This document shows positions 4,881 through 64,000 of a stretch of DNA of 64,000 nt, one piece after another. A program made the position numbers and the translations under genes. Each line of letters opens with the position of its first letter. Positions within the stretch are counted from its first letter, which is position 1. The notes beneath the pieces were generated by a model. The model was not told the DNA's origin. It saw nothing but the letters and a program-made list of their open reading frames with translations, and did no database searches. Source of the DNA: Macrotrachela quadricornifera (lineage: Eukaryota > Rotifera > Eurotatoria > Philodinida > Philodinidae); the NCBI GenBank assembly GCA_022393335.1, contig JAJEKB010021601.1:2419713-2483712 (forward strand), read 5' to 3'.

Positions 4881-4892
4881 ATTTATTATTCA

Positions 4893-14689: not shown

Positions 14690-15765
14690 GAGCCTAACCA
14701 GGAAACTTCCCCAGGTATTCAAGCCCGCTAGTTACCATCTTATGGCGTTAGGTAGACCTCAATGAAGTATGAAAAACGTCAAGAGGATTCGTGCGCTTGC
14801 TCCTTGATTCCAGAGATATCGAATTCGCAAGATGTTTACGTAAAGGGATCAAAATAAAAATGATTGTTTTTGGAAAACAGTAGAGTTTTAGTATTCCGGT
14901 GAAAAGTTTTTTAAGCCTCACGCACTGATCGTGCAACTTGTTCAGAATTAAAAGTTAGATCATATCTTATCAATACTGCTTCTATTGGCTGTTCATCTAG
15001 TCATAAGACACCCAGAACTCTTCATTCCATACCTGATATCGTGATACGCTTGAAAAGTCTGCACTAGAGTAGATCAATGAAAACGATAGTTCAAAAAAAA
15101 GTGATTGAAACATAGTGACTTGTCACATCAGCTACAGCAGATAAAAGGAGCCACATCGCATGAAGGCATGGCACATATCGTCGCATCAAAGGAAAAATAC
15201 ACTTCGGCCGCAGTTTTGAGGATCTCAAGATGATTGTCCATGCAACCACTGGCGTACCAAGCGTGTTGATTCACTGGACAAAAAACTTCGAAAGAGAGTT
15301 GGTTATGCGTGAGAGATGTGTGACCTTCATCTGCCTGTTGAAAAAGACATCTAATGGCTGAATTTGATCCGTCGTTTTCTTCGGCATTTCAAGCCTTATG
15401 CATCCGGAGATATGATCGTATAATACCTTTCCATGTGTCTGTCTACCCCAACAGTCCAAGATGAGTAGGAACTTTTGATGCTTTCCTAGCGACGGGAGGA
15501 GTACATGATCGCACCAGTACTCAACCAAAGATGTTGTGAGCTTTCCAAAACTTCTGTAGGCTATCACCACATTCGAGGCCTTGAAAAGATACGAGCGAAC
15601 ATTCTCGCTCATGTGTGCTTTAGGCTCCTTGAAGCAGAGGTAAAACGGTGAAAGAAGATAGCCGTCGAGTGCGATTATTGACTGCACTGTATACCTGTGG
15701 ATGGTAGCGTTTATAGAGGGGATAGATCTAATTGTAACCTTCTCTCCTTTTGTGGCTTAAAGATG
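14690..15765 (-). mobile_element. Remnant of a pogo/Tc1-mariner-like transposon
   Basis: The left boundary at about 14690 carries GGAAACTTCCCCAGGTATTCAAGCCC and about 120 bp of further sequence. These match, with divergence, the terminal repeat of the foldback at 45444-46073 (GGGAACATCCCCAGGTGTTTAAGCCC). A DDE transposase fragment reads toward this end on the minus strand. No opposite terminus was found, so the copy is probably truncated. Confidence 0.65.
15271..15762 (-). pseudogene. DDE-superfamily transposase fragment
   Basis: A continuous minus-strand frame holds the middle of a DDE_1-type transposase (pogo/jerky group). VQSIIALDGYLLSPFYLC supplies the first catalytic Asp region. LLILDCWGRQTHG supplies the second Asp, and PKKTTDQIQPLDVFFNRQMK is the conserved block after it. 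The N-terminal DNA-binding helices and a start codon are absent, and the frame ends about 35 residues after the last block, well short of a full-length enzyme (normally 400-500 aa). The fragment is judged inactive. The apparent start at 15687 is a GTG, so the frame is given from the upstream coding similarity instead. Confidence 0.75.
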
Positions 15766-16279
15766 AAGTAGAGTATAACTCGAGCTGAATTGCACTTTGG
15801 TCTGATTTTCTTAGCATTGAAAGAATATAAAAATTCGAACAATTATATCGTTATTTAAAAGTACCGAACAGTACAACACGTAAAGTAGAATAACTAATGA
15901 TAAATCGACTTCGTACAAATGGAAAATATTGTTCAATAACTTACCGATCTCTATTAATATTTCGAAGAACATTTGTTCAAAATGAAAAATTTCGAAGAAA
16001 AATCATCTTCTGCTCAATGAATTTCATTTCTTGCTTGACTCAAATATGACTTGGATATGTATGCAATAGTTTTGAATAACGATACTATACTTTTACAAAT
16101 GTCAAGGTTTAATCTAAATGATACGTGTGATCTCTATGTCAATCGTAATTTTATTTTCGATCAGACCTTTTATTCATCAATATAATTCCAAGTCATCATT
16201 GAATAGTATTATCAACATATAATCGAACTTTATGAAAATTTTTAATACGTTTGGTATGTGTTAAATTTAAATTAAGTTC
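15766..16279. other. No gene seen
   Basis: AT-rich, frequent stops on both strands, no recognised repeat. Confidence 0.4.
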
Positions 16280-17992: not shown

Positions 17993-17994
17993 AG

Positions 17995-18212
17995 ATATAT
18001 CAAAAATTTATTGATCATTAGTCTCCAATCGCTTGCTTATCTGGACAGCTATCGTATATACAAATCATCCTATGGTTTAACCGACTGATTATTGTTTTTA
18101 ATACTTTCATACGATGATAAACATACTGATTTACATAATCTGAGACTTTGCGTATGTGATGGAATAAAACTTATAAATATTTGCTGTAGTTTCGGAAGAT
18201 ATTCTCAGTAAT
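17995..18212 (+). pseudogene. F-box-like protein remnant (copy 1)
   Basis: The plus frame reads LAYLDSYRIYKSSYGLTD and then a TGA stop. This is the same segment that is still open in the second block (30544-30786). The AYLDSYxIYKAFYGL pattern resembles the F-box region of bdelloid F-box/LRR proteins. It has no intact start or C-terminal part. Confidence 0.45.
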
Positions 18213-18563
18213 CGATCGATCGATCGCATGTGATACTCTAATATTATCAATAGAAGACAATGATGAATAAATCAATAATTTATTCGATATTGAAACATTG
18301 TTCATTTAGTTTGATCACAAAGAGTTGTCTAAAAAAAACTAGATCATTACAACATTTGTGCTTTATCGTTGTTTGTATATATTCATTCGAAGCCGTTCTA
18401 TGTCGCTATGTGATATGAAGAAAAATAGAATGATTCATATTTATTACAGTCAAGCCTAGAGGAAGAAAAGAATGTCGACATTCATTTTTTGCCTCGTATC
18501 AACACTCGTCATGTTTTTTTTCTTTTTCTATTGACTCATTCTCTTTTTCTTTCTACTATGTAA

Positions 18564-18658
18564 TGACGTCATTCACATAACGTATGCTTGTAATGATAAC
18601 TTTTGCAGTGTCATCGTTCAACGTCATTATGCGTTTGCAACAATCTTTAGTATATAAG
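18564..18658 (+). promoter_or_regulatory. Pirin promoter: CRE palindrome and TATA box (copy 1)
   Basis: TGACGTCA at 18564-18571 is a perfect CRE/ATF site and TATATAAG at 18651-18658 is a good TATA box, 40 bp before the chosen ATG. Both are conserved in the second copy. The TATA box lies downstream of the first in-frame ATG (18584), which argues that translation starts at 18698. Confidence 0.6.
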
Positions 18659-18697
18659 TTCAACAGTATTTTCAATCAATTCAAAGTAACAAACATA

Positions 18698-19492
18698 ATG
18701 TCATCATCATTATCGAATATCATTGTACGAATACGTCCATCACTATCTCGTGGTCATGCTGAACATGGATGGTTGAATAGTTATCATACATTTTCATTTG
18801 CTAATTATTTTGATCCAAAATTCTCTTCATGGGGTGCTTTACGTGTGATCAATGAAGATCGAGTTACCGGTGGTCATGGTTTTGGTAAACATCCACATGA
18901 AAATTTTGAAATATTTTCTTACATTGTTAATGGTCGTATTCGACATGATGATAGTCTTGGTCATACTGAAATTCTTCAACGAGGTGATGTTCAATTTACA
19001 TCAGCTGGTACTGGATTAGAACATTCAGAATACAATGCTAGTAAAAAAGATCTTCTTCATTTCTTACAAATATGGGTTAAACCAAATGTTAATGGATTGA
19101 AACCTGCTTATCAAACAAAAAGTTTTACTGATGAAGAAAAAACAGGTAAACTTCGATTAGTTGTCAGTAATGATGGTCGAGATAATTCTGTTCAAATCAA
19201 TAATGAAGTAGATATGTATGCATCATTATTACGAAATGAAGATAATCAATTACATTTCACATTTCCACCTGGTCATATTGGTTATCTTCATGTCATTCAA
19301 GATGTTACAGATTATGATGAAGAAGCTAATGAAGTTGGACTCATTGTCAATGATCATCAAAAACTCAACAGTGGTGATGGTGCTTTTATTTCACTTGATG
19401 ATAAGACCAAACCTGGAGAAATTACCATTCGAGGTAATCACAAAAACAATGGAAAACCGACTGAATTTGTTCTTTTTGATATTGCGAAATAG
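18698..19492 (+). CDS. Pirin family protein (copy 1)
   Basis: 264-aa bicupin of the pirin family. Bacterial and human pirins bind a metal, usually iron; some have quercetin 2,3-dioxygenase activity and human pirin acts in nuclear transcription control. The N-terminal cupin has the expected metal-site pattern: GGHGFGKHPHENFEIFSY (HxHxxxE-like, with the second histidine and Glu present), followed by the second histidine block GTGLEHSEYN. The RGHAEHGWLNSYHTFSFANY opening is the pirin signature. The C-terminal cupin is present to LFDIAK at the end. The gene has a single exon. ATG 18698 is preferred over 18584 because the TATA box lies between them. An AATAAA-like signal lies near 19627. Location is probably cytosol or nucleus. 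The exact substrate cannot be told from sequence. Confidence 0.93.
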   Translation: MSSSLSNIIVRIRPSLSRGHAEHGWLNSYHTFSFANYFDPKFSSWGALRVINEDRVTGGHGFGKHPHENFEIFSYIVNGRIRHDDSLGHTEILQRGDVQFTSAGTGLEHSEYNASKKDLLHFLQIWVKPNVNGLKPAYQTKSFTDEEKTGKLRLVVSNDGRDNSVQINNEVDMYASLLRNEDNQLHFTFPPGHIGYLHVIQDVTDYDEEANEVGLIVNDHQKLNSGDGAFISLDDKTKPGEITIRGNHKNNGKPTEFVLFDIAK

Positions 19493-19640
19493 AAATTTAT
19501 TATTATTTCTTGTACAAATGCTCACATATTCTTCAAATCATTTTTTTTTATGTGGTCTTTTTTTTCTCATCTAACTGCTGCTTATAATGGAGTTTTCATG
19601 TATGGTTTTTCAATGAAACATTGAAGAATAAACTAATTCC

Positions 19641-27222: not shown

Positions 27223-28112
27223 TGTACTTTGTTGAACTGAATCGACTAAAATATCAATAGGATTTATTTCGATTGAGAAGTATTTTATGTAAAATAATTC
27301 AGTTCAATTGTAATATCTATTTTCTCATCTATGATACCAAATCTCTCTTAAAAATCGTAAACCACTGAAAGAGTTAGGTTTTATAGTGAAATTATAGTAT
27401 CATAGAGAGAATATACCCTATTCCGCGATACTACACCTTGTGGAATGAGTTCCATCGAATTCCGCTACGGTCCAGTTTCTGAAGTTCCATGTCGGGATTA
27501 CTAATCTTCCTCACCCTCATCCTCACACCCACAAGATAGCTTTCCTACCTTGAGTGGAAGAACATTGTTTTAGTTGGTCGTCAATTTTTGTTTCCATAAT
27601 CATTTGATCATTTGATGTCATTCCAAATCAACAAAAATCTTCAATAAAAAAAACAGTGCGCAAGTTTTTGTGAAATAATATCCGTCGTGAGTGTTGAAAG
27701 ATAAAGAGAGAAAGTTAGAACTCCTCTCCCCTTTGCTCCACAGACATGTCGTAAAATCTCTATAAACCATCACGATATCTGATGGTCTAGTGGGATTTTT
27801 CAACATTTCTATTTTCGGATCCGATAGGAATCACAGTGAAAAGATTGTTTTTCACAGACACCGCATCAGTTATATTGCTGTATATTTTTACATGAATAAT
27901 TGTTAAAATACTTATATTCAACCCTGTTTTAAAGCAACTGAAATTCTTCTCATCTTATTTTATCTAGACAAACATATTTATCTATCTGCAGCCATAAGCA
28001 ACAGTATCCACTCATAAAAAACATACCTTTTATTTGCACAGTGGTCACAACGCATTCATTCGGTTTTGAATAAAACTTGAAGTCATTGATATTCTTACAC
28101 ATTTATGACCTA
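27223..28112. other. No gene seen
   Basis: AT-rich upstream flank of the F-box gene; no supported exon or repeat. The frame at 27618-27806 is considered chance. Confidence 0.4.
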
Positions 28113-29369
28113 CTAGCGGAGGTACTTGATGAAAAGAGAATATAGTTTAAGTTTTGTATCATCCCCCCGACTTATTCTGCTGTACATAACACGTCTTCTA
28201 CAGGACTGTCCCCCATTGTGGGTGAGTTACCTGCAACAGAAAATTTCCCGTCACATCTGAAACCCTTGAACAGAACTTTTATCAGCATGCGCCAGGCATC
28301 TTTAATAGGATTGTTCCTGTTATGCGTTAGTGTTCGCCTTTGGACTCTTCTCGCCTTGCGTGGGATATCTTTTAGAGCATTTCCCGCCGTGCGTGGGGTA
28401 TGTTTCACAGAACTTTTCCCGCCATGCATCAGTCATCTTCAACAGGATTCTTCTCGACGGGCTAAAGCTGAATCCTCACTCGCATCCACTCTGGACACGA
28501 TCACTCTCAAATTTGCATTGAACTGCGTTATTTGGTTAGACAGTGAATAAAATCACGATCTCTCACGACTTGGATGAAGTTTCACGCACACCTCCCTTTC
28601 TAACCCCCAATCACTCTGCCGACTTTCCTCAGCACTCAAGGAACTGATGCGGATAGTTCTGTGACGTTATCTCTCACAATGACGAAATACATAGTGAACA
28701 GACTCATCAGAATCTCGAGCTGTATCGATCGCGATGAAATTTCATTCAACCCCTTCCGCGCACCCCGTTTAGTGGTTACAACCTCAAGTCGACTTTCCTC
28801 AGGAGCTAAGAAAGTAGCGTGGAAAGTTTCGTGACGCTAGCTATCACAGAGACCGAATGCATAGCGAACAGACAAAGGTTCTTCTTTAAATATATAGATG
28901 CGTCATCGATGTGAATCAAGGAAACGCTTGTATACATTTTTTTCTCTCATAACCTGTTAGAAGCATTCGATTTTCATATTTAAACCAAAGAACCATCGAT
29001 ACAAAATGATTCATCTTAGCATCATAACAAATTCGCTAAATTTCTGAAAATTCATGCGAATTTCCTTACCATATGGCATGGGTGAAATTTCACCCAAACA
29101 CCCCCATCCTACCCCCTATTCATGGTAACAGCACGTTATAAAGCTACCGCTTCACTCAGCAAAGCACTGTGGAAAGTTTGGTACTGTTTGCTAAGACACT
29201 ACTATCTGGGTGAGATTTCACCCACACCCTCGGTGGGTGACCGCGCTAAGACCTTCCTCCGGACCTGGGGATGCACCATGCTAAGTTTGGTGATCGAAGC
29301 TTTTACAGGGACGGAATGCATAGCGAACAGACAGACAAACAGACAGACATTCTTCTTTATATATATAGA
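28113..29369 (-). mobile_element. Non-autonomous Helitron-like element, copy A
   Basis: Read on the minus strand it begins TCTATATATATAAAGAAG at 29369 and ends CTCCGCTAG at 28113, i.e. TC...CTAG, with an A before the 5' end and a T after the 3' end, as expected for Helitrons. Copy B at 44025-45260 aligns over its whole length, and similarity stops at the same TC and CTAG in both. A second TCTATATATTTAAAGAAG-like 5' end lies inside (near 28908), so the outer part looks like an extra 5' end joined to a shorter element. The CTAG-proximal half has degenerate 50-bp-scale repeats of an AAGATGCCTGACGCACGGCG type. No Rep/helicase gene is present. Confidence 0.65.
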
Positions 29370-30004
29370 TTAGGTTTTTTTTGAAAAATGTCTTTTATAA
29401 ATATAGCAACTATCGATGATTGAGAAAAACAGTTCTATCCGTTATAGATCTCTTTGCATTGAGTAGGAGGCTCAGATTTATGCATAAAAATAAACTAGAA
29501 TATATTGTAATGAATTTGAATCTATAAAAAAAAATAATAATAGAAATATTGGAACAACCTAGAATAAGGATAAATCTCACTTCTATACTCGCTTTAAGTT
29601 TAGAATCTTCAATTATTTCAATAATTTTGAGGATTGTGAACCAAGTTGATTGTTCAGTTCAAAATAATCCCATCGACTAGGTCTTCGCTAACGAGTCACT
29701 GAAAATCGAAGTGACACCAAGAGCTCGACATGCTTAAAATCTTCAAAAACGAAAATTCATTATGAGTATATTTTCTTCAGGAATGTGAAAATATTCTTAT
29801 AATCCCTGCTATAATTGATAAATAATCTTGTCAAAATCATAGAGTTATTTGAAGCGAACTACCAAACAAAAATTCTCTGATGAGATTAGATTAAAAATGA
29901 AAGACTACTCACAAATTGGAGTTTGAAGATTTTAGCGTCCAGAATTAAAATGAATGATCGAAACTATTTTACTGAGAAGTTTCCTCTCATCTTTGCACTC
30001 CATA
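29370..30004. other. No gene seen
   Basis: AT-rich sequence leading into a TCGA-rich tandem repeat; no exon supported. Confidence 0.4.
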
Positions 30005-30543: not shown

Positions 30544-30786
30544 ATGTTTTATTTAGCAATATGTTTCAGATATCTCAAAAACTTATTAATCACTGATCTC
30601 GAATTGTTTGCTTATCTGGATAGCTATCGTATATACAAAGCATTCTATGGTTTAACCGGTCGATTATTGTTTTTAGCACTCTCATATGATGATAAACATA
30701 TTGATTTACATGAACTGGGACTTTACATATGTAATGGAATAAAACTTATAAATATTTGGTGTAGTTTCGGAAGATATTCTCAGTGA
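30544..30786 (+). pseudogene. F-box-like protein remnant (copy 2, open frame)
   Basis: An 80-codon frame contains LELFAYLDSYRIYKAFYGLT, resembling the F-box region of bdelloid F-box proteins (DYLDGYQLYxSFxxLN type), then HIDLHELGLYICNGIKLINI. It lacks the usual LPxE start of an F-box and ends at a stop far short of a full protein. The other copy of the block has an in-frame stop here. It is therefore more likely a remnant than a gene. Confidence 0.4.
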
Positions 30787-31138
30787 TCGATCGATCGATC
30801 GCATGTGATACTCTAATATTATCAATAGAAGACAACGATGAATAAATCAATAATTTATTCGATATTGAAACATTGTTCATTTAATTTGATCACAAAGAGT
30901 TGTCTAAAAAAAACTAGATCATTACAACATTTGTGCTTTATCGTTGTTTGCATATATGCATTCGAAGCCGTTCTATGTCGCTATGTGATATGAAGAAAAA
31001 TAGAATGATTCATATTTATTACAGTCAAGCCTAGAGGAAGAAAAGAATGTCGATATTCATTTTTTGCCTCGTATCAACACTCGTCATGTTTTTTTTCTTT
31101 TTCTATTGACTCATTCTCTTTTTCTTTCTACTATGTAA

Positions 31139-31233
31139 TGACGTCATTCACATAACGTATGCTTGTAATGATAACTTTTGCAGTGTCATCGTTCAACGTC
31201 ATTATGCGTTTGCAACAATCTTTAGTATATAAG
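31139..31233 (+). promoter_or_regulatory. Pirin promoter: CRE palindrome and TATA box (copy 2)
   Basis: TGACGTCA at 31139-31146 and TATATAAG at 31226-31233, with the same spacing to the ATG as in copy 1. Confidence 0.6.
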
Positions 31234-31272
31234 TTCAACAGTATTTTCAATCAATTCAAAGTAACAAACATA

Positions 31273-32067
31273 ATGTCATCATCATTATCGAATATCATTG
31301 TACGAATACGTCCATCACTATCTCGTGGTCATGCTGAACATGGATGGTTGAATAGTTATCATACATTTTCATTTGCTAATTATTTTGATCCAAAATTCTC
31401 TTCATGGGGTGCTTTACGTGTGATCAATGAAGATCGAGTTACCGGTGGTCATGGTTTTGGTAAACATCCACATGAAAATTTTGAAATATTTTCTTACATT
31501 GTTAATGGTCGTATTCGACATGATGATAGTCTTGGTCATACTGAAATTCTTCAACGAGGTGATGTTCAATTTACATCAGCTGGTACTGGATTAGAACATT
31601 CAGAATACAATGCTAGTAAAAAAGATCTTCTTCATTTCTTACAAATATGGGTTAAACCAAATGTTAATGGATTGAAACCTGCTTATCAAACAAAAAGTTT
31701 TACTGATGAAGAAAAAACAGGTAAACTTCGATTAGTTGTCAGTAATGATGGACGAGATAATTCTGTTCAAATCAATAATGAAGTAGATATGTATGCATCA
31801 TTATTACGAAATGAAGATAATCAATTACATTTCACATTTCCACCTGGTCATATTGGTTATCTTCATGTCATTCAAGATGTTACAGATTATGATGAAGAAG
31901 CTAATGAAGTTGGACTCATTGTCAATGATCATCAAAAACTCAACAGTGGTGATGGTGCTTTTATTTCACTTGATGATAAGACCAAACCTGGAGAAATTAC
32001 CATTCGAGGTAATCACAAGAACAATGGAAAACCGACTGAATTTGTTCTTTTTGATATTGCGAACTAG
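31273..32067 (+). CDS. Pirin family protein (copy 2)
   Basis: 264 aa, identical to copy 1 except the last residue (Asn for Lys), so the same bicupin fold, HPHENFE and GLEHSEYN metal-site blocks and single-exon structure apply. Both copies keep promoter elements and an intact frame, so both may be expressed. Near identity of coding and promoter sequence beside more diverged flanks suggests recent duplication, gene conversion or selection. An AATAAA signal lies near 32149, in a 3' end that has diverged from copy 1. Confidence 0.93.
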   Translation: MSSSLSNIIVRIRPSLSRGHAEHGWLNSYHTFSFANYFDPKFSSWGALRVINEDRVTGGHGFGKHPHENFEIFSYIVNGRIRHDDSLGHTEILQRGDVQFTSAGTGLEHSEYNASKKDLLHFLQIWVKPNVNGLKPAYQTKSFTDEEKTGKLRLVVSNDGRDNSVQINNEVDMYASLLRNEDNQLHFTFPPGHIGYLHVIQDVTDYDEEANEVGLIVNDHQKLNSGDGAFISLDDKTKPGEITIRGNHKNNGKPTEFVLFDIAN

Positions 32068-32175
32068 AAATTTATTATTATTTTTTGTTTTTTTGTTATC
32101 GTACAAACTAACTATGCTCATAATGGAGTTTGAATATATGATTTTTCAATAAAATATTAAAGAATAACCCAATTG

Positions 32176-39690: not shown

Positions 39691-40089
39691 TAATAGGGTA
39701 AGTATGCTCTCCGTCGAAATTAATATCACGGATACTTTTTTCAATGCTTCTTTTACCACCGCCGTCTAGATAATCCAAGCTGTCATCAATGTTTATAAGA
39801 CAATACCTAAATAGATTTCAAGTCTATAATAAATATTTAAAAAGCAAGCGCAAGAGATGATCGCCAAAAATTAGATCTTTGAAGTAAATATTGGTGGTAA
39901 TAAATGATCGAAAAAATTCGGCGATCTTGTTTTTCGATAATGTTCTTTTCGGCGCGAGTTTCGGCGATCTCACTTTTCGACGATATACTATTCGGCGACG
40001 AGCATTACATTCCAAAAGTTGACAGGGGTAGCGATATCCCATGGGAAATGGTACGATATCTACTTTTCAGGGACATCGTCAACTGCTGT

Positions 40090-40772
40090 TGGTTTTGGGT
40101 TTTCATCTTTCTATTGAATTAGGATAGGTGTTATTTAGTATTGTAAGAAGAAAACATACTATTGTTCGGATCATATGAGAGAGAATTAGATAATACATGG
40201 ATTGGTCCGAATAACATTATGTCGTATCCTTACGATAGTGAAGAAAAGCATTATTAGATGATTGAACTGTGAGTTCACAGTTTTCTCCACTATTGTCAGG
40301 ACAAAACATAGTATTGTTCGAGCCAATCTAGAGGTTTATAGGGGTCCTCTTTCATATGACCTGAACAACATCATGCTTTACCCTTACAAGAGTATTTTTC
40401 ATCCTTACAATATTAGAGAAAAATACTACTAAGTCAACCAATTATGAGCTCATGACTTTTCTCTATCATTATAAAGATAAAGCATAGTGTTGTTAGGGTT
40501 ATATGAAAGCGAACCCCTACAAACCCCTAGATCGGCTCGAATAATATCATGTCTTGTCCTGACAATAGTGGCGAAAACTGTGAACTCACAGTTCAATCAT
40601 CTAATAATGCTTTTCTTCATTATCGTAAGGATACGACATAATGTTATTCGGACCAATCCATGTATTATCTAATTCTCTCTCATATGATCCAAACAATAGT
40701 ATGTTTTGTCCTTAAAATAGTAAAGAATACCTATTCTAACTCAATAGAAAGACGAAAATCCAAAACCAAAAC
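40090..40772. mobile_element. Foldback element, arms about 340 bp with almost no spacer
   Basis: A nearly complete palindrome centred near 40430. The left arm starts GGTTTTGGGTTTTCATCTTT and the right arm ends AAAGACGAAAATCCAAAACC. ACATACTATTGTTCGGATCA, GAATAACATTATGTCGTATC and TGTGAGTTCACAGTTTTC all have complements in reverse order. No coding capacity; likely a MITE/foldback. Confidence 0.75.
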
Positions 40773-41527: not shown

Positions 41528-44500
41528 ATGTCTTCATCAGAATATGAATCCGAGCAGAATTTTTACGATGATAACTCGGAGGAAGACATGATCAATAGTG
41601 ACACGGAGGAAGACATATTCAACAATGACGATTACGACGATGCTTGTAACTTTGACGATACATCGCATTTTGCATCACTATTGGATTCACTTTTGGAGAA
41701 AGCTGTACCCGATCTCTCAACAAATTCTTCTGTTCATTCGGCCATGGATCTTAATTCCGATTGTTCAACTAATTTAAATTTATCAACACCATATCTTAGT
41801 GACTCACTTCGTACATATTTGACAGTTTCACCACTCATCCGAAAACCATCAAACTCATTCAAACCTTACTTATCAATTGATCCTACAGTTGATAGTTTAG
41901 GATCCAGTTCGTTATCATCATCTGAACTCTATATTGGAAATCTTCCTTCTAACACTAACTTATCTGCATTGAAAGAATGGTTTATTGGTTGTGGCTATGG
42001 TGTTAGTCGTATCGATGCACCAAATAAAGTGAGCAAAGCTTTATATCTTTATTTAATCGAATATTAAATTTTACATGTTATTTCTAGAGACGTGCTTGTT
42101 ATACGTTTGTACGCTTTGATTCGATTTCTATTGCTACAAAAGTTCTATATCAAAGTGAAAGAAGACGATCAAACTTCATTTTTAATGGCCGTGAATTGGA
42201 TATCAAACGTCCTACTCGATCTTCTACACAACCTACTAATATCACACCCATGACAACAGCAATCGATATGACGCCTAAAACTTTTAATTTTAATATTACA
42301 GATGTTCAGTATGGAACACTTATTATAGGTGCAGCTATGGAAAACATTCAGAAAATAAATAGTAATATTTCTAATCAAGATGAATTCGGGATTATCGTGC
42401 AAGGTTTGATGAATGAAGAATGCAAGATTTCTTTTCGTCTTAATATAGATTCTGAAAAGAAAAAACTATCTATTATTGGTGAAATTGATTTAAATATCTC
42501 GACGTTTTCTAATGCGAATATTACACTAGGATTTGAATGGAATTTTCAAGAGTAAGTTTAATTAATTTATACACTTTTCTATAAGATAAAACTATTTTAT
42601 ATATTTCAGTTTAAAAGGTAGAAAGATAACTCCAGTATTAGTCAATCATAATGATATCTTTCTCCTGATCGAATTTAAACGACCTCCAATTGTATTGAAA
42701 GTACGAAATATTACTCAGGAAGATTTTGATACATCCGATGATGTTCGACTTCCAGGCCCAGGATTTACTGGTCATGCTAATACATGGCTTTTTAAATTAT
42801 CATCAGAAAAACTTGCAAATTCTTACGTAGAGTTATTTACAATTCTACGACGTTATAATTTATCACCAAAACAATTTACCGAACACAATATCATCAGTTT
42901 AACTAGTTCACTAGAAGCAGCTGAAAAGAATCTCGAATGTGTCCAAGTATTGCAAAATGATTCATGGGTAAAACAAAATCAAATTAAAGTAGATAATTTT
43001 CTTTATCATCAATGGTCAGTATATCCATTTGAAACTAAATTTGAAATCATGAAACTTATATCAAAACATATAATCACAGTCTATGATTTAATTGTTGATG
43101 AACAAGCAGAATATATTTTAAAAAAATGTACTATTAATACAGTTATTGCTTGTACAGGTAAATACAGATATTTGATTTCATTAAGAAAAACTACATCTAT
43201 ATTTTAATAGACAGAATTGTTGAATTTGCTCCTAGATGGTTTTCTACTACCTGTGATAATGCAGATGAAGATTGGAGCGTGAAAACTGAAGCACAAGTAG
43301 AATATGAATCCACGATCGTTAATAATTCACTAACTTCTTCACATATTCGTTTAAGTACCACTGGCGCATCGATTGACATAGGACACACTAAAACAGAATC
43401 GATGATAACAGACATGAATCACCATTCGTCCGGAACACAACAGCGTCATATTGGAACATTTAGTCGTCTTCTTCTTTTTGCTCTTGATCAATTATGCAAA
43501 AGAAAAGAACTTCGTCAAATAACAGGAATGTATGTAACTAAACTTGAATTACGTACTGCTAATGCTAATCCATTTTTAATACGAAAAATATACATCACAC
43601 CATCGACTATTCTTTATGAAGGACCATATTGGGAAGAAAAATGCGCAGTTACACGGGAATTTGTAAAATATCAAGATAGATTTCTTCGAGTGACTTTTCG
43701 TGATGAAGGTAAGATAATTTATTTATGAAATGATGTTTATATTATTATTTCAAATAGATTATCGTGAATTACATAATTATAATAATAATATGACAAAAAT
43801 GTATGAACGTATTAAAAAGATTTTAATACACGGTATTAATATATGTGGACGAAATTATCAATTTTTAGCTTTTTCAAATTCACAATTACGTGAACATTCT
43901 TGTTGGATGTTTGCATCAATTAAAAATGGTACAACAGTCGATACTATTCGTTCATGGATGGGTGACTTTAGAAATATTCGTCCGGTAGCGAAATTAGCCG
44001 CACGTGTGAGTATAATTATGTATATCTATATATATAAAGAAAAATGTTTGTCTATGTATCTGGGTGTGGGTGAAATCTCACCCAGATGGTGCTGTAATAG
44101 CTAACATTAACAAAGTTTCCACAATGCTTTCCTGAGTTGAGATGTAGTTTTAAAGAGTGTTGTCAGTACTTATAGGAGTAGAGAGAGGCGTCTAGGTGAA
44201 ATTTCACTCAGGACCTGTTGCAAAGAAATTTGCGTCAATTTTACAGAAATTTAGCGAATTTGTTATAATTCTGAGCTTAATCATTTCGTATCGATGGTTC
44301 TTTGATCTAAATGTGAGAATCGAAGGTTTCTAATAGATTATAAGGGAAAAAAATGTATACAAGTGTTTCCTTGATTCACAACTATGGTATATCCATTTAT
44401 TTTCTATGACTCACAGAAACAACGTATTTGTTCTTTTTCTTGACTCACAACGATGACGCATCTATATATATAAAGAAGCATGTTTGTCTGTTCGCTATGC

Positions 44501-47500
44501 ATTCATTCTCAGCGATAGTTAGCATCACAAAACTTTCCACACTACTTCCTTAGCTCCTGAGGAAAGTCGACGTGGATTTGGGATCACCAAACGGGGTGCG
44601 CAGAAGGGGCTGGCTGAAATTTTATCCCGATCAAAACAGATCGAGATTCTAATGAAGCTGTTCGTTATGTATTTAGTCATCGTGAGAGATAGCGTCATGG
44701 AACTATCCGCATCAGTTCCTTGAATGCTAAGGAAAGTCGGGAGAGTGATTGGAGGTGAGAAAGGGACGCGTGCATGAAACTTCATCCAACCCATAAGAGA
44801 CCGTGATCTTACTCACTGTTTAATCAAATGACGCAGTTCAATGCAAATTTGAGAGTGATCGTGTCCAGAGTGCATGCAACTGAGGATGTCAACTTGAGCT
44901 CGATGAGAAGAGTCCTGTTGAAGATGCCTGATATACGGCGGGAAAAGCTCTGTGAAAAATACTCCACACACAACGGGGTAAGGTCTGTAGCAGAAGTTTC
45001 AGGTACGATGAAAAAAGTCCTGTGAAAGAGGTATCACGCACGGCGAGAAGAGTCCTATGGCGAACACTTAACGTATAGCAGGAGCGATCCTGTTAAATGT
45101 GCCTGACGCATACCGGTAAAAGTCCTGTCCAAGATGTTTCAGATAGCTCACCCACAGGGGGGAACAGTTCTGTAGAAGACGTGTTATGTACAGCAGAAAA
45201 AGTCGAATGGAAGATGCAAAACTTAAACCATATTCTCTTTCCATCGGGTACCTCCGCTAGGAGTTCTATAAAACTTATGTTGCACAATCCCTAATGGGAT
45301 TAAAAATGTGAAACACGATGTATCCATTCTTACTAATTACTTCAAAGCCGTATTTGATGTATATTCGTATATACTTGGACATTATTCCTTATTTTGTAGC
45401 GTCGAACTTCAACAAGGAAATACTGCAAAGATATTTTAACTAGACTTACGAGGGAACATCCCCAGGTGTTTAAGCCCTTTAGGTCCGACCTTTTGGCGAT
45501 AGATAGACCCCAATGAGGTATCAAAACCCTAAAGAGGATTCATCCCCTCGCGCCTGTGTTCCCGACTTATGATCATTTTACCCTATTTTTCGCTTCCTGC
45601 AAGGTATTTTGAAAAAATTTCCAATGACGCATTTTAGGCCTGAAATTTTGCCTATAGATAGATCTCATCGGCACTAGATTGTTCTACAAGTATCAGTCCG
45701 AGCGGATGTTTCTTTCACGAGATAATAAGTTTCTAAGGCAGATCAGTTTTTTTCGAATGATTAGTAAAATACAGGATTTTTTAAATTTCGATTATCTCGA
45801 GAAGAAGACATCCACTCGGACTGATACATGTAGAACAATCTAGCGCCGATGAGATCTATCTATAGGCAAAATTTCAGGCCTAAAATGCGTCATTGGAAAT
45901 TTTTTCGAAATACCTTGCAGGAAGCGAAAAATAGAGTGAAACGATCATAACTCGGGAACACAGGCGCGAGGAGATGAATCCTCTGTAGGGTTTTGATACC
46001 TCATTGGGGTCTACCTATCGCCAAAAGATCGGACCTAAAGGGCTTAAACACCTGGGGATGTTCCCTCGTTAGTTTATACATGACCTCTGATAGTTCTTGA
46101 AGACAAATATCAACATATGTGACAGGCTCCAAACTGTATCTCTCATATTGTATAATATCCTGAAAAGGCCATCTTGCCTGTCGGTCACAGTAAATTATTT
46201 TTATAGTTAGGACAATCATTTTCGACCAGTATCAAAGGAATCAAACTTGAAAATGATCAATTCACAGAAATACCAGATGTTACAACAAATGATATCTATT
46301 CACCGAAAGTATTCACAGATGGTATTGGTATTATTACGGCAAAATTTGCTAAAAAATTAGCCGAAGAAATGAAATTACCTTGTAAAACATCATTTCCATC
46401 GGCATTTCAAATTCGTTGTGGAGGTTATAAAGGTATTCTTTTATCTTAGTAGTAATTTCGTAAATAAAAACATTATTTTTCTATAGGTATGGTCTGCATA
46501 GATGTTACAAATCGCATTACTAATCCCAATATAAATGTGTTTTTTCGTCCATCAATGAGTAAATTCTCTGCCAACAATTTTTCTATTGACGTTGTACGTA
46601 CATCATTAAATCCTTCAACTGCTTATCTCAATCGACAAATTATTGTTCTTTTATCATCTCTTGGGATTTCAAATGATGTCTTCATTTCTTTAGAAAACTG
46701 TATGCTTCAACAAATAAAAACATTAACAGGAGAACCAAAAAAAGCATGTGAATCATTAAAAGCTTTAAATGAATTTGGTGGTAATGGATATCATACATTT
46801 TTAATTGAATATTTAAAAGTTCTAAATAAACAAAAAGAACCATTTACTCGACGAATTCTTCTTGCATTTCAAGCATTTCTTGTTAAAGAATTACGAACAA
46901 AAGCAAAAATTCGTGTACCAAATTCATGGAATCTATTAGGAGTAATAGATGAAACTCGAACACTTAAATATGGTCAAGTTTTCGTACAAATAGATAATAG
47001 CAATCAACAACAAGAAGGTATAACAAAACAAATTTTACAAGGTCCTATTATAGTAACCAGAAATCCATGTTTTCATCCGGGTATATATTGCAATCATTCG
47101 TTATCAAATAATTTTTCTTACTTATTTTGTTAACAGGTGATATTCGACGACTTGAAGCAATTGATGTACCTGCTTTACATGAATTAAAAAATGTAATTGT
47201 ATTTCCTATGGATGGATCTTGTCCTCATCCAATGGAAATGTCAGGTGGTGATCTCGATGGAGATACATTTTGGATATGTCATTATTCAGATTTAATATTT
47301 CAAACAAATGAAGAACCATTTAATTATCATGATCAAGAAATTCAAGCTCAAAAAGAAGCACAATCACTTGCAAATGTACAACATACAATCGATGATGTTT
47401 GCAATTTTTTTGGTGAATATATTGCAGCAGATAAGTAAGATTTATAAAGTACTTGTGAGAATCCGTGCATACTTCACGACTGTTTTTTCTCTAACATATA

Positions 47501-48740
47501 ACATCAAACATATAATCTCTGGTCTGACACAGACACTGAACATTATATATATAGCTTCGTGATATTTTAATTATTGATTTTTTATTTCAGTCTTGGTATA
47601 ATTGCTAATAGCCATTTAGCTTTTGCTGATCGATTACCTGACGGAGTTAAAAATGATAAATGTCTCAAATTAGCTCGAATGCACAGGTACATGAAAAATA
47701 AAATAAAATAACGTTTTTGTTTCTTTATAAAAATTATTCATTATTTTTCATAGTATCGCTGTAGATTTTGCTAAAAATGGTATAAATGCACCACGTCTTA
47801 CACGTGATCTTCGACCACAAGAATATCCACATTATATGGAAAAAAAAGATAAAACAACATGTACTTCAGATACAATTCTTGGTAAACTCTATAATAAAAT
47901 TGAATGTTATAAAATTGATTTAAATATTAATGAACAAGAAGAAATCGATAGTACATTATCATTTCCTTATACATCTTTTTTCATTAATGGACATTATTAT
48001 TATATAAAAGAGGCTCGGGTTATGAAAAGTGCATATGATCGAGAATTAAAACGAATAATGCGACAATATGGTATTTTACATGAAGCTGAACTTGTTACAG
48101 GTTATATTCTTAAATTTACTTCAAAACAATATGCAAAACAAACAAAAATTTTCGAATTAAGAAATGAAATGATGCATGCATATAGAGTTTTACGAGATAA
48201 GTAAATATAAAAATCTTTTTCTTTTGAATTAAATCTTCATAAAACTTATTGTTTTTGATTTTCATCAGATATTTACATCTATTTTGGGAAGAATTCTATC
48301 AATCAACAGATAAACAAGAAGAACAACAAAATGTCAAATGGTCAGAAGTATCAAAAAAATTAACATGTAAAAATCAATTGAATTTACTTGATTTTTATGA
48401 TCGAGCAACATTATACAAGGAAAAAGTAAAGAAAAAAGCATCTGCTTGGTTTAAAGTTACTTATGATCCATGGATAACATATATCAAGACAAATAAGATG
48501 AATAAACGGAAAAAACAAAATACGCTTGTGGATAATCAACTGTCCATGGCAGAGCAACGATTCAAGGGATTTTTTAGCTTTGCATGGATTCTATATCCTA
48601 TTCTATTAGAAATATTCTCTGAGAAACAAAATGATTCAATGAAAAATACAGAATTAAAAAAGAAGAGAAAAAGGAAGAGAAACACAAATAAGAAGACAAA
48701 TTCAACCGTTCGTTCAACTGCCAATAAGAAGAAGATATAA
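41528..48740 (+). CDS. Cell-encoded RNA-dependent RNA polymerase with N-terminal RRM (11 exons)
   Basis: Copies RNA into double-stranded RNA for small-RNA silencing. Exons: 41528-42028, 42088-42551, 42610-43157, 43211-43708, 43758-44005, 46207-46432, 46487-47080, 47137-47434, 47591-47686, 47754-48200, 48269-48740. The coding total is 4392 nt (1463 aa), all introns have GT..AG ends and phase is kept at every junction. Residues 1-50 are acidic. An RRM spans about 134-210 (RNP2 LYIGNL, RNP1 RACYTFVRF across the exon 1/2 join). The RdRP core has FLAFSNSQLREHSCWMFA, SWMGDFRNIRPVAKLAAR, RNPCFHPGDIRRLEAIDVPA and the catalytic SGGDLDGDTFW with D1065, D1067 and D1069, the DxDGD signature of eukaryotic RDR/QDE-1 enzymes. 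A basic C-terminal tail (KKKRKRKRNTNKK) suggests nuclear import. Where many RdRPs have MGQ after LAAR this reads LGQSFS, from the exon after the 2.2 kb intron 5. That intron carries two transposable elements; the others are about 50-160 bp. AATAAA lies near 48797. Confidence 0.93.
44025..45260 (+). mobile_element. Non-autonomous Helitron-like element, copy B (RdRP intron 5)
   Basis: Starts TCTATATATATAAAGAAA at 44025 with A before it and ends CTCCGCTAG at 45260. It is homologous over its whole length to copy A (28113-29369, opposite strand). A second 5'-like end, TCTATATATATAAAGAAG followed by TTTGTCTGTTCGCTATGCAT, occurs at about 44465. Its sense matches that of the host gene. No Rep/helicase gene is present. 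Confidence 0.65.
45444..46073. mobile_element. Mariner-family foldback MITE (RdRP intron 5)
   Basis: Left end ACTTACGAGGGAACATCCCC and right end GGGGATGTTCCCTCGTTAGT. The arms, about 45444-45710 and 45800-46073, are close reverse complements, e.g. CTATAGATAGATCTCATCGG against CCGATGAGATCTATCTATAG. The arm sequence matches the end of the pogo/mariner remnant at 14690, which suggests a non-autonomous relative of that transposon. It would form a long RNA hairpin in the RdRP pre-mRNA. Confidence 0.75.
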
Positions 48741-54258: not shown

Positions 54259-56775
54259 ACTATGTTAGCATGTTTCCGTCATCGGTGAGACGATAACTGA
54301 TATATTACAAAGTATCATTGATTTAGAAAAACTGTTCTTTGATTAAATATATACTTCTTTTATCTTAAATATTTGTAAAATTTCAAATAAATCTAATTAA
54401 TCAATTATTCAATATCTGGCAATGTTTTATAAAATCGATTGAATTCGTATAAATTAATCATTATTATGGTTACATCAAGTCGTTATGTGAAGTACCTCAA
54501 ACGGATTCCCCTATATAGGCTGACATGTTTACAACAAAACAGTAAGTAGGTAGTTGAACTAAAGTCTCAATGAAACATTTGTATAGTACAAAGCATTTTG
54601 TTTGGAGAAATTCTTGTTCGTTAATATCAGTTGTAGGAGATAATATGTTATCGCACTCTTGATTTCGACTATTTTGCAAGAGGAAGTCAGATTGCTTTTC
54701 AGTAGTCATCAACGTCTGAGATGCGGAGGTGACATGAATGTTTTTTGCATGGATGAAAGCCTTTGTGCAGTCTCATAATTCGTTTCATTAGTTGTGCTAA
54801 AATTGAAGTTATGCTTTTTAAGAGTTTTTTGGTAGATCATTGTGTGGCAGATCAAAAAAATAGCTGAAAAGATGTCAGGCGAGTGTAGTAAAGTAATTGA
54901 CATAAATTTCCTAATCATATACTGATGTAAAACGGATTGTTTTTATAACTTTCTAATTAAAAGAAGCACCTAATCGATTTAAGCCGCCCAATTTTGATCA
55001 ATTTATAGTATAATTTCAATTTCTAATGTTACTTTTGGATGTTGATTTTTGGTCAAATCCTTTTATACCAATCAATCGTCGGAAAATGCTGAAAAAGAAA
55101 TACTATTTTTTAATAAGAGAATGATTTATAAATCAAAAGATCGTATGGCTCAACATAGAGCTTGAGATTCCTATTTTTAGTTGGGACCTGCCACATATGA
55201 TTAATACATATATGAGTATCATTTTCGAATATAGAAATCAGTGGGAGCAATACGCCAAATGGTGATTATGGAGCCGGGCATATAGGGCAAGCTCCAAAAG
55301 TACGGGTTCGAGCGAAAAGTCACTAGATTTTTTCCAACAGCTTCCCCCAACCGTTTTTACGCGGATGTGGCAACAAAGTGAGAGGAAAATTTCAGCCCGT
55401 ACGCTTCGATCTGACAATTATTATTCTTCAAGATTTACATGAACACTTTCAATCAGAATGTCATGTATAAATTCAAAGATAATAATTATAAAAAGTTATG
55501 TATCAAATACTTTTATTGATAAGCTAAACGTTTCGAGTTAGCATTATTAAAATGCTAACCTATGGATTATATAGCAAATGGTAAATACACATCTTTCGAA
55601 AATTTCGACATGGGTGGATTTTCGTTCTTATATATCACCCCTTCTCCATTTTTTTTACTTTTCTGTTTATTGATTTACAACGGTGCTGGCATCATAAAAG
55701 CAAACTGGAAAAAATCTTGTTGACAGCAAAGTCAACGTGTTTGATGCACGATAAATATTAACGTGTAGAAGCGCAAGAGAATTTATCTTTGGTTGCGAAC
55801 GCAACATTTTCTTGTTAAAGTTTTGATTCTATATAAGAAACGTGAAAAGGTAAGATTGTTTTTAATTTTAAACTACATTTTACTTTTATTTGACAAAGTT
55901 ATCTAAGATTCAAAATGATTTTTTTCAAAGAATCTTGCATACATGACAGAATCTTTTAATAATTCTCAGAGTTATCTAATGACGAGTTCGATGTTAAATT
56001 GAATTTCATTTTAGATCAGTTATTTTAGAGAAGAAGATGACTGATGATACAAATACCCTTATAGCTAAATACATGGATTCATGGACAATGCAACATATGA
56101 AAGATGAAATGAAAGCTACAGATGAAGAATTGATATACCTCGCGAAATTACGGCAGCTTCGACTCCAGAAAGTGCAACCAACGCGGAATGATTATGATAG
56201 TAGTAATCCATCAATAGTAATTGACGACTTTCTTTATCATGGCGACATAGATCATGCTAACAACATGAACTTACTTATGAATCTGGGTATTCGACATATC
56301 GTGAATACATGTGATGAACCATTGAATAATACAATCATAGAAAATTTCAATGTGTTATGGATTAATCTAAGTGATGATCTTTCTACTGATATCAATCAAC
56401 ATTTTCAAAAAACGAATGAATTTTTGCTTTCATGTAAAGAGAAGAACGAAAAAGTGTTAGTTCATTGTCACATGGGAATATCTCGATCATCTTCCATTGT
56501 TCTCGCCTATCTAATGAAGTAAAACTTATTTTTGTATTCGAAAACCGACTAAATTCTTCATTTTAGATATCATCATGATACTTTGCTAAAAGCTTACGAT
56601 TATTTGCTCGATCGTCGTGGTGTATCTTCACCAAATTCTGGTTTTCTTATGCAATTGATTCGATATGAGAAAAGCTTACGCAATAGTGGAGAGATTAATG
56701 AACAAAAAAATAATGATGATAAACAGAATCCTATTATACAAGTGGATATATCGAGTAATTCCGATATCAAATAGT
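54215..56775 (+). repeat. Tandem duplication, unit 1 (phosphatase block)
   Basis: Begins at ATATCCGTTCTACAAATCACTTC and runs through the phosphatase gene. Unit 2 begins at about 58136 with the same words. Unit 1 contains about 600 bp (roughly 54640-55280) that unit 2 lacks. Confidence 0.85.
56037..56774 (+). CDS. Dual-specificity protein phosphatase (copy 1, intact)
   Basis: Two exons, 56037-56518 and 56567-56774, joined across a 48-bp GT..AG intron; 690 nt, 229 aa. The N-terminal region (about 1-50) is a helical leader (YMDSWTMQHMKDEMKATDEE). The catalytic domain spans about 57-205, starting SIVIDDFLYHGDIDHANNMN. Key residues are visible: general acid Asp in NLSDDLSTDI (D113/D114) and the P-loop HCHMGISR with nucleophile C144 and R150, followed by SSSIVLAYLMKYHHDT. 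The protein should remove phosphate from Tyr and Ser/Thr of proteins in the cytosol or nucleus, like atypical DUSPs; the substrate is unknown. The C-terminal tail (NNDDKQNP...SSNSDIK) is polar. A TATA-like CTATATAAG lies at about 55829. A GTAAGA (55850) and a TTTTAG (56014) may bound a 5'-UTR intron. Confidence 0.9.
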
Positions 56776-56934
56776 CGTTGGCTTAGAAAAGAGAATAGAT
56801 ATTTATTTAATTTTTTATTTTCTAAAATATTAGATAAATCATTCATTATGTTAACCATCGCAATTATAAAAAATAAATCCTTTATTATAATCATGATCCA
56901 AGAAGATAAAAAATGAATTGTTTTATTCAAAAAT

Positions 56935-62087: not shown

Positions 62088-63994
62088 ATGACCGATGATA
62101 TAAATACCTTTATTAAGGGTATTTGTCAGAGTTGCCACCTCTTCTGCTTTTTTAAATATTGTATTGTTTACATTTTTAACCAACATTTTTCTTTCATAAT
62201 TATAACAAAAATTTTGACCGTACTTACCGAAGATGTATTGAGAATAAATAATGCCCAATAAGGATAAGAACTTTTCTTTTACAAAAATCCACAAAATCGA
62301 AGACAATTTTATGGAGAATTACTTAAGTTGATTTCATTTAGCCATGCATACAACCAAACAGACTAGCCGATAGTCAGGGGTGTACCTTGGTCTCAGAGGC
62401 AGGAAGGCGCAAAGTCTTCATTCGTGTAGATTCAGCATCAAAACATTCCTGAAAACACAATTTTTCGACCAAAGCAAAAATAATATTTTCAGAAGCAGGA
62501 GTGCAGCGCCCCACACCATCCCTCCTAGTTACTCCCGTGCCGAAACTGAACCTTTCACTTTCATCGTTGGTCTGTTCGATTCTATACAGTACTAGACGAA
62601 TTTAAGTCGAACGATTCTCAAAAAAAATCTTATAAAATTTCGGCAATTCTGAGAAAAGAAAATCTTTCATCTCTGTTACGAAATCTTCAGAATATTCAAC
62701 CGGTTATGAATGTTTATATTTTCTCTCACTTCAATCATCAAATTTTAAAAAGTTCATATGCTTCTTATATGTCTTTACCATCCTATAGCAATGTTTATGT
62801 TGACTCAGCATTCTCAGAATTGAAACATTTATCATATAATAAATGGAATTGTACGAGAAGAAAACTTATATCGCGGAAGTAAAAATACATTTAATTTTCT
62901 CCTTATCATAACTAAGATGCGTAAATATCTATCAGATAATTAAGATTTATTAAAAGCTATTAAATCAAATTGAAAATATGTAGTCAAAAGAAAATGTGCC
63001 CAATAATCCTATTCGCCAATTTAGTAGGTCTATTTCTTGATCTTGTATAACTCTATTTTTTATCGATTCACTATTTTTTTGATTTTGTACAATAATGATG
63101 AGAATTTAATATAAAATTTCTTAATTAATACACTGGAACAAGTTTTAAAATCGTTTATGTCACAAAAAATAGGCTTTCTGTTTTCTTTCTGCTTTTCGAT
63201 GATGAAATTTCTGCCATTTTCTGCTATTTATAAATTGTTTTCTGCTTTTTAGACTTCAGAAGGTGGCAACACTGACCCTTATAGCTAAATACATGAATTC
63301 ATGGACAATGCAAGATATGAGAGATCAAATGAAAGCTACAGATGAAGAATTGATATACCTCGCGAAATTACGACAACTTCGACTAGAGAAAATACAAACG
63401 ACGCGGAATAATTATAATAATAGTAATCCATCAATAGTAATTGATGGTTTTCTCTATCATGGCGACATAGATCATGCTAACAATATGAACTTACTTACGA
63501 ATCTGGGTATTCGACATATCGTGAATACATGTGATGAACCGTTGAATAATACAATCATAGAAAATTTCAATGTGTTATGGATTAATGTAAGCGATGATCT
63601 TTCTGCTGATATCAATCAACATTTTCAAAAAACGAATGAATTTTTGCTTTCATGTAAAGAGAAGAACGAAAAAGTGTTAGTTCATTGTCACATGGGTGTA
63701 TCTCGATCATCTTCCATTGTTCTCGCCTATCTAATGAAGTAAAACTTATTTTTGTATTCGAAAACCGACTAAATTCTTCATTGTAGATATCATCATGATA
63801 CTTTGCTAAAAGCTTACGAATATTTACTCGATCGCCGTCGTGTATCTTCACCAAATCCTGGTTTTCTTATCCAATTGATTCGATATGAGAAAAGCTTGCG
63901 TAATAGTGGAGAGATTAACGAACAAAAAAATAATGATGATAAACAGAATCCTATTAAACAAGTGGATATATCGAGTAATTCCGATATCAAATAG
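62088..63994 (+). pseudogene. Dual-specificity protein phosphatase (copy 2, interrupted)
   Basis: The original ATG (62088) and the first codons (MTDDINTF) are followed after about 40 bp by a 1.15 kb insertion. The reading resumes at 63275 with LIAKYMNSWTMQDMRDQMKA and continues to 63738, then after a 48-bp intron from 63787 to 63994. The catalytic domain is complete, with HCHMGVSR and the DDLS acid loop, and is very close to copy 1. The first ATG after the insertion in this frame is at 63293; the GTG at 63263 is inside the element. A protein could still be made from 63293, lacking the first 10-12 residues, or by splicing out the element (CTTTTTAG at 63244-63251 is a usable acceptor). Without transcript data it is called disrupted. 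Confidence 0.75.
62127..63274. mobile_element. hAT-like insertion in phosphatase copy 2
   Basis: The ends CAGAGTTGCCACCT and AGGTGGCAACACTG are inverted repeats of the hAT type. ACCCTTAT follows on the right, and ACCTTTAT lies 13 bp before the left end. The 13-bp gap is an inverted copy of the target (TAAGGGTATTTGT). About 62640-62880 reads PSYSNVYVDSAFSELKHLSY and then NKWNCTRRKLI, which loosely resembles the C-terminal dimerisation region of hAT transposases, so the element may be a decayed autonomous copy. The frame at 62380-62595 is not recognised. Confidence 0.65.
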
Positions 63995-64000
63995 TCGTTG

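What the first reader, a model, noticed from the sequence alone, without database searches (positions are those of the whole stretch)
44006..46206. An RNA-silencing polymerase gene carries a long dsRNA-forming inverted repeat in its own intron
Intron 5 of the RdRP gene is about 2.2 kb while its other introns are about 50-160 bp. It contains a Helitron-like element and a foldback whose two arms of about 270 bp pair closely (45444-46073). Transcription of the gene would put a long hairpin into the nuclear pre-mRNA. Since the product makes dsRNA, this could be a source of small RNAs that tune RdRP itself or silence the mariner family represented at 14690. Presence of the hairpin is seen; the regulatory role is inference.
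Basis: partly seen in the sequence, partly recalled or inferred. Interest (0 to 1): 0.75.

Follow-up and report, generated by a model that had tools for sequence, protein, structure and literature searches.

The report
Tc4-type foldback transposon in RdRP intron
An intron of an RNA-silencing gene in what is most likely a bdelloid rotifer has been swollen by several jumping genes, among them a Tc4-type foldback element whose RNA would form a long hairpin; nothing found shows that the hairpin regulates anything.

Summary
RdRP intron 5 is 44006-46206 (2201 bp; the other nine introns are 49-156 bp) in a gene with an intact 1463-aa frame. It holds a Helitron-like element and a 620-bp foldback (45449-46068) that split a further repeat. 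The foldback is a non-autonomous transposon of the Tc4/Tc5 group: TNA duplication in 20 of 33 full copies, five of five fetched paralogous empty sites with CTNAG, and Tc5-type domains in both of the two longer same-ended elements scanned. Its end pattern has 1185 hits against 0 for the control. The three closest RdRP paralogues have this intron at 51-64 bp. The predicted hairpin is strong (282 pairs), but no RNA data exist here, and passive transposon accretion explains what is seen. One lead: gaps over 1 kb between domain matches are commoner in RdRP genes (10/56) than in Piwi (2/65) or TCP1 (0/77), and two other RdRP loci also have inverted repeats in intron-like gaps.

The parts
41528..48740 (+). 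RdRP gene: 11 exons, intact 1463-aa product with an N-terminal RRM and an RdRP domain containing the GGDLDGD stretch
   Evidence: Spliced ORF; Pfam PF05183 E=1.3e-182 and PF00076 E=4.9e-08; 14 of 14 listed homologues are Rotaria or Adineta proteins
44006..46206 (+). Intron 5, 2201 bp, GTGAGT...TATAG
   Evidence: Frame test of two acceptors; same intron position in three paralogues at 54, 51 and 64 bp
44025..45260 (+). Helitron-like non-autonomous element (5' TC, 3' CTAG), with a second 5'-end-like stretch from 44461
   Evidence: Second copy at about 28102-29370 minus strand; copy in the RdRP gene on C3715 with a near-empty site on C3515
45270..46174 (+). Third repeat of about 230-280 bp split by the foldback (left half up to 45448, right half from 46072); alignments to other copies begin at 45270-45283 and end at 46122-46174
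   Evidence: 486 candidate copies, 40 scored; five fetched copies run across the junction at 83-90% identity
45446..45448 (+). Left copy of the target-site duplication TTA, within target CTTAG
45449..46068 (+). Tc4-type foldback transposon, 620 bp, ends CGAGGGAACATCCCC
   Evidence: predicted fold
45449..45726 (+). Left arm of the foldback
45791..46068 (+). Right arm of the foldback (reverse complement of the left arm; 94% over the 286-nt aligned stretch)
46069..46071 (+). Right copy of the target-site duplication TTA
14694..15805 (-).
   Evidence: tblastn and blastn to L057-L059; end alignment

Best explanation
Intron 5 of this RdRP gene was an ordinary intron of about 50-60 bp that collected transposons: a Helitron-like element, a short dispersed repeat and, after that repeat, a 620-bp non-autonomous foldback of the Tc4/Tc5 group that inserted into a CTTAG inside it and duplicated TTA. 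A Tc5-type transposase supplied in trans by longer relatives with the same ends would have moved it (inferred). The gene stayed intact because the insertions fall inside an intron with both splice sites kept. When the gene is transcribed the arms should pair in the nuclear pre-mRNA and then be removed with the intron (inferred). Any small RNAs cut from it would match other copies of the same foldback family, not RdRP mRNA. Most likely it is a passenger with no selected regulatory role.
For: Exact intron and intact frame. dN/dS against three paralogues is 0.43, 0.25 and 0.30. The three closest paralogues have this intron at 51-64 bp. Five of five fetched copies of the surrounding repeat (of 40 listed) run straight across the insertion point, four with CTTAG and one with CTAAG. 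20 of 33 full-length foldback copies have an identical TNA duplication, against a chance 3-mer match of 2.4%; 26 of 33 left flanks are CTNA and 29 of 33 right flanks TNAG. The end pattern has 592+593 hits against 0+0 for the reversed control. Elements with the same ends 2.8-4.2 kb apart were fetched (L057-L059); of these, L058 and L059 were scanned and match Transp_Tc5_C (E 5e-11 and 2.1e-10), and the one N-terminal frame scanned, from L059, matches HTH_Tnp_Tc5 (E 4.7e-06). Literature: Tc4 targets CTNAG and duplicates TNA (PMC11071193, passages).
Against: 13 of 33 full copies do not show an identical duplication, and 7 of the 40 loci were not counted as full length. The DDE_1 matches are below Pfam's cut-off (18.6 and 14.7 against 22). 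Long gaps recur in other RdRP genes more than in two control families, and some hold inverted repeats, which pure chance accretion does not by itself predict. No RNA data were available, so lack of function is inferred, not shown.
Confidence: 0.8

Rival explanations
1. The intronic hairpin is a natural RNAi trigger against its own transposon family: read-through transcription from the RdRP promoter makes dsRNA from the arms, which is diced and silences other foldback copies and their transposase source, as described for Tc1 inverted repeats in C. elegans.
For: A long, near-perfect hairpin is predicted. The hairpin shares exact 21-mers with 30 of 39 other fetched foldback loci and exact 25-mers with 18 of 39. 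Read-through of Tc1 inverted repeats making dsRNA is described in a review (PMC3878927, passages). C. [quoted passage not shown]
Against: No 18-mer is shared with the three longer relatives examined or with the 14694 fragment, so the transposase sources seen here are not directly matched. Other copies of the family could do the same, so the RdRP site is not special. No small-RNA data.
Confidence: 0.13
2. The hairpin feeds back on RdRP itself: when RdRP is active it copies or processes its own intron, and the resulting small RNAs or altered splicing lower RdRP output.
For: The host gene makes the enzyme that amplifies small RNAs. Long gaps with inverted repeats occur at two other RdRP loci of this genome.
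Against: No 18-mer of the hairpin is shared with RdRP exons. The insertion is absent from the same intron of the three closest paralogues. In eight fetched gap regions of other RdRP genes, the only match to intron 5 is the Helitron-like part, in L065.
Confidence: 0.04
3. The foldback is another kind of element (a PIF/Harbinger or plain TA-targeting mariner MITE), or a local inverted duplication rather than a transposon.
For: A 3-bp TTA duplication alone would also fit PIF/Harbinger (recalled).
Against: Target CTNAG with any central base, and Tc5 domains inside elements with the same ends; paralogous empty sites.
Confidence: 0.03

Closest known systems
Tc4 (Caenorhabditis elegans foldback transposon; also arthropods and tardigrades)
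   Same: Foldback of long inverted repeats; target CTNAG with duplication of TNA only; same-ended relatives encode proteins with HTH_Tnp_Tc5 and Transp_Tc5_C domains.
   Different: Different host lineage (most likely a bdelloid rotifer); 620 bp with 278-bp arms; inserted in a gene intron. Tc4 consensus sequences were reported as deposited only for nematodes and arthropods, to which that study adds tardigrades (PMC11071193, passages).
Tc1 natural RNAi in C. elegans (Sijen and Plasterk 2003, seen here only through passages of the review PMC3878927)
   Same: Inverted repeats inside read-through transcripts could fold into dsRNA and feed RNAi.
   Different: The review reports processing and silencing there; here only the sequence is available.
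Helitron (rolling-circle transposon)
   Same: 5' TC, 3' CTAG, A|T target in 2 of 3 copies examined, near-empty site on a presumed haplotype.
   Different: No replication-helicase gene was looked for in relatives; the 3' flank of the intron copy starts with G, not T; the 3' hairpin is short and weak (by eye).
Expanded bdelloid RdRP family
   Same: RdRP domain with RRM; closest proteins are from Rotaria and Adineta. Bdelloid 'haploid' assemblies average 38.9 RdRP copies (PMC7943196, passages).
   Different: This copy carries a 2.2-kb transposon-filled intron 5 where its three closest paralogues have 51-64 bp.

Membership tests
Tc4/Tc5 group DNA transposon | Target CTNAG with duplication of TNA | tested here: met
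   20 of 33 full copies with an identical 3-bp duplication; CTNA in 26 and TNAG in 29 of 33; five of five fetched empty sites are CTTAG or CTAAG
Tc4/Tc5 group DNA transposon | Fold-back structure of long, nearly perfect inverted repeats | tested here: met
   286-nt arms, 94% complementary, 64-nt spacer
Tc4/Tc5 group DNA transposon | Source elements with the same ends encode a Tc5-type transposase | tested here: met
   Transp_Tc5_C above cut-off in L058 and L059, HTH_Tnp_Tc5 above cut-off in L059; L057 not scanned; shared ends at 76-85% over 93-122 bp
Tc4/Tc5 group DNA transposon | Catalytic DDD core | tested here: inconclusive
   DDE_1 matched only below its cut-off; acidic residues were seen by eye only, and no transposase tree was built
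Helitron | TC...CTRR ends, A|T insertion without target duplication | tested here: inconclusive
   TC and CTAG in three of three copies; A|T flanks in two of three, not in the intron copy; site filled on C3715 and nearly empty on C3515 with a 3-bp difference
Helitron | Rep/helicase gene in an autonomous relative | not tested
   The genome search with the element did not complete
   The duplication is TNA with a variable central base
Tc1-like natural RNAi trigger | Small RNAs from the inverted repeats of read-through transcripts | not testable with these tools
   No RNA reads are held
Tc1-like natural RNAi trigger | Sequence match between hairpin and potential target transcripts | tested here: inconclusive
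   21-mers shared with 30 of 39 other foldback loci, none with L057-L059 or the 14694 fragment

The most novel reading that the evidence does not exclude
Introns of the expanded RdRP genes in this bdelloid act as preferred landing or holding sites for inverted-repeat transposons, so that every burst of RdRP transcription also makes hairpin dsRNA, giving the silencing machinery a built-in supply of transposon triggers and a brake on itself. In favour: 10 of 56 gaps between successive RdRP domain matches exceed 1 kb, against 2 of 65 for Piwi and 0 of 77 for TCP1. Three RdRP loci (the window gene; C3515/C3715; C4409) carry inverted repeats in gaps whose splice sites look canonical, while the two presumed haplotypes of the one long Piwi gap carry none of 40 nt or more.
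Probability: 0.05. Interest if true: 0.8.

Novelty: new member of a known kind. Interest (0 to 1): 0.38.

Why it matters
It gives a well dissected case of transposon accretion in an intron of an RNA-silencing gene, with target duplication and empty sites. It places Tc4-type foldbacks, reported as deposited only for nematodes and arthropods plus tardigrades and with a suggested origin in Ecdysozoa (PMC11071193, passages), in what is most likely a rotifer, which would argue against that origin unless they came by horizontal transfer. If the excess of long, inverted-repeat-bearing gaps in RdRP genes held up in other bdelloids, it would be a testable link between the RdRP expansion and dsRNA supply.

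Tried and rejected
Mariner with TA duplication: rejected, since the duplication is TNA. PIF/Harbinger: entertained while only the TNA duplication was known (note), dropped when Tc5 domains were found inside elements with the same ends. The 14690 element as a direct target: no shared 18-mer. Arms matching RdRP exons: none. Alternative acceptor at 46210: breaks the frame. A second allele of this gene: the DNA searches with exons 6-7 and exons 4-5 found nothing closer than 76% over a long stretch, so alleles could not be compared. Phage collection: no match, as expected. Limits of the gap comparison: presumed haplotype pairs are counted separately (merged by eye, about 6 RdRP loci against 1 and 0); gaps are inferred from domain matches; some may lie in pseudogenes; the C4601 gap contains RdRP-like coding stretches (L071), so it is not one intron. 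Of the nine RdRP gaps over 1 kb outside the window I fetched seven, not C534 or C535, plus the 698-bp-excess gap of C4467. Of the 119 Piwi rows 115 were entered; the four left out are isolated matches. All 102 RdRP rows and all 108 TCP1 rows were entered.
Full report
What is there. The window lies in a 450-Mb, 5695-contig assembly (G000:C4804:2419713-2483712). All 14 listed homologues of the RdRP protein are from Rotaria or Adineta, the best-scoring at 62% identity (only the 7987 candidates sharing most words were scored), so the host is most likely a bdelloid rotifer of another genus (inference). The RdRP gene runs from 41528 to 48740 in 11 exons and encodes an intact 1463-aa protein with RdRP (E 1.3e-182) and RRM domains. 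Intron 5 is 44006-46206, 2201 bp, with GTGAGT and TATAG at its ends; the other nine introns are 49-156 bp. Against three paralogues dN/dS is 0.43, 0.25 and 0.30, which speaks for constraint, although the alignments are distant and dS is high (0.74-1.31).

How the intron grew. The paralogues on C1823, C4351 and C4660 have an intron at exactly this place, of 54, 51 and 64 bp. The extra length here is largely transposons. First, 44025-45260 is a Helitron-like element with TC and CTAG ends; a second copy lies at about 28102-29370 on the minus strand (pieces at 80-86%). A third copy sits in the RdRP gene on C3715 and is absent from C3515, presumed to be the other haplotype (outer flanks 93-94% identical); there the sequence runs CTAA, element, TAACTTG against a near-empty CTAATTATAACTTG. 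The intron copy is followed by G rather than T, and no helicase gene was looked for, so 'Helitron-like' is the fair name. Second, a dispersed repeat with 486 candidate copies is split in two: its left half ends at 45448 and its right half starts at 46072. Third, the foldback 45449-46068 sits inside that repeat.

The foldback is a transposon of the Tc4/Tc5 group. Five copies of the surrounding repeat were fetched, of 40 listed; all five run across the insertion point without a break there, four with CTTAG and one with CTAAG, so the insertion duplicated TTA. Forty family loci were examined, the window copy and 39 fetched ones taken; 33 are full length, and 20 of these show an identical 3-bp duplication of the form TNA, against a chance 3-mer match of 2.4%. 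Thirteen do not; in several of these both flanks still fit CTNA and TNAG but with different central bases. Some loci look like one insertion seen twice (L030/L031, L020/L022, L027/L034), so the 33 are not all independent. The end sequence CTNACGAGGGAACATCCCCAGGTG with up to three mismatches occurs 592 times forward and 593 reverse, against 0 and 0 for the reversed pattern.

Transposase-bearing relatives. Pairs of such ends 2.8-4.2 kb apart were seen on C1045, C1870, C3192 and C5317 among the listed hits, and three were fetched (L057-L059). They share 93-122 bp with the foldback ends at 76-85%. Reading frames of L058 and L059 match Transp_Tc5_C above cut-off, that of L059 also HTH_Tnp_Tc5, and DDE_1 only below cut-off; L057 was not scanned but matches the window's transposase fragment by DNA (77% over 485 bp). 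In the passages read, PMC11071193 states that Tc4 recognises CTNAG, duplicates only TNA, and that consensus sequences are deposited only for nematodes and arthropods, to which it adds tardigrades; it cites Yuan et al. 1991 for the fold-back structure (that paper is not held). A search for Tc4, rotifer and transposon together found no paper in the held library, and five papers hold the term TcMar-Tc4, none with rotifer in its title. That is not proof that it is unreported.

The fragment at 14694-15805 is a decayed relative of the same transposase, 73% identical over 143 residues, with one recognisable end. But the end and the hairpin match at 92 positions over about 121 bp and share no 18-mer. 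The hairpin shares exact 21-mers with 30 of 39 other fetched foldback loci and exact 25-mers with 18 of 39, and shares no 18-mer with L057-L059 or with the window outside intron 5. Small RNAs from it, if made, would find other foldbacks, not RdRP mRNA and not these transposase genes. Other, closer transposase sources may exist that I did not fetch.

What the hairpin would do. Folded alone, the 620 nt give 282 pairs, -485.6 kcal/mol and one run of 90 uninterrupted pairs, a plausible Dicer or ADAR substrate (established knowledge, not tested). No transcript or small-RNA data could be consulted. Since the window alone holds nine inverted-repeat pairs of 60 nt or more, some overlapping and this one included, and this family has over a thousand end matches in the genome, one in an intron needs no special reason. 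Passive accretion is the best explanation.

A lead beyond the finding. With RdRP domain matches across the genome (102 matches on 46 contig strands), 10 of 56 gaps between successive matches exceed 1 kb after allowing for missing profile positions. The same count is 2 of 65 for Piwi and 0 of 77 for TCP1; Fisher p is 0.012 against Piwi and 0.0001 against TCP1. Presumed haplotype pairs inflate these numbers, and the loci reduce by eye to about six against one and none. Eight RdRP gap regions were fetched, seven of the nine over 1 kb outside the window plus C4467: three hold inverted repeats of 40 nt or more (L065, L066, L069) and five none (L067, L068, L070-L072). The C4601 region (L071) contains RdRP-like coding stretches. 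Both presumed haplotypes of the long Piwi gap hold no such repeat. Splice sites at the C3515/C3715 and C4409/C4153 gaps read as canonical by eye. None of these eight regions matches the foldback; only the Helitron-like element recurs, in L065. Relaxed constraint, location or pseudogenes could explain the excess; it is reported as a lead only.

Noticed in passing
L012-L050 and window 45449-46068: The two arms of a foldback copy resemble each other (mean 87.5%) more than arms of different copies do (79.4%, same or opposite arm alike), and in 9 of 33 copies the two arms are sisters in a tree (shuffled mean 0.38): the arms seem to be renewed together.
   Followed up: partly
L065, L066, L069 (C3715, C3515, C4409): Other RdRP genes carry long intron-like gaps with inverted repeats, and presumed haplotypes differ in their insertions.
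   Followed up: partly
window 40089-40769: A second strong foldback (301-nt arms, 90% complementary) lies about 0.76 kb upstream of the RdRP start codon; its ends differ from those of the intron foldback.
   Followed up: no
window 227-980, 4181-4884, 11748-12444, 16922-17500: Further long inverted repeats, without blastn similarity to intron 5.
   Followed up: no
window 17993-19513 and 30568-32088: A 1.5-kb direct duplication at 97.6% identity, 12.6 kb apart, each copy with a 303-aa frame that looks pirin-like (recalled).
   Followed up: no
window 56055-56780 and 63275-64000: A direct duplication at 94.8% identity carrying a frame that resembles a dual-specificity phosphatase (recalled).
   Followed up: no
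L027 and L034 (C4163:144032 and C4163:312704): What looks by its flanks like the same foldback insertion appears twice on one contig in opposite orientation, 168 kb apart, suggesting an inverted duplication or an assembly palindrome.
   Followed up: no
L050 (C4261:887704-889370): A 1667-bp family member with 278-bp arms at 97.5%, intermediate in length between foldback and transposase-bearing elements.
   Followed up: no
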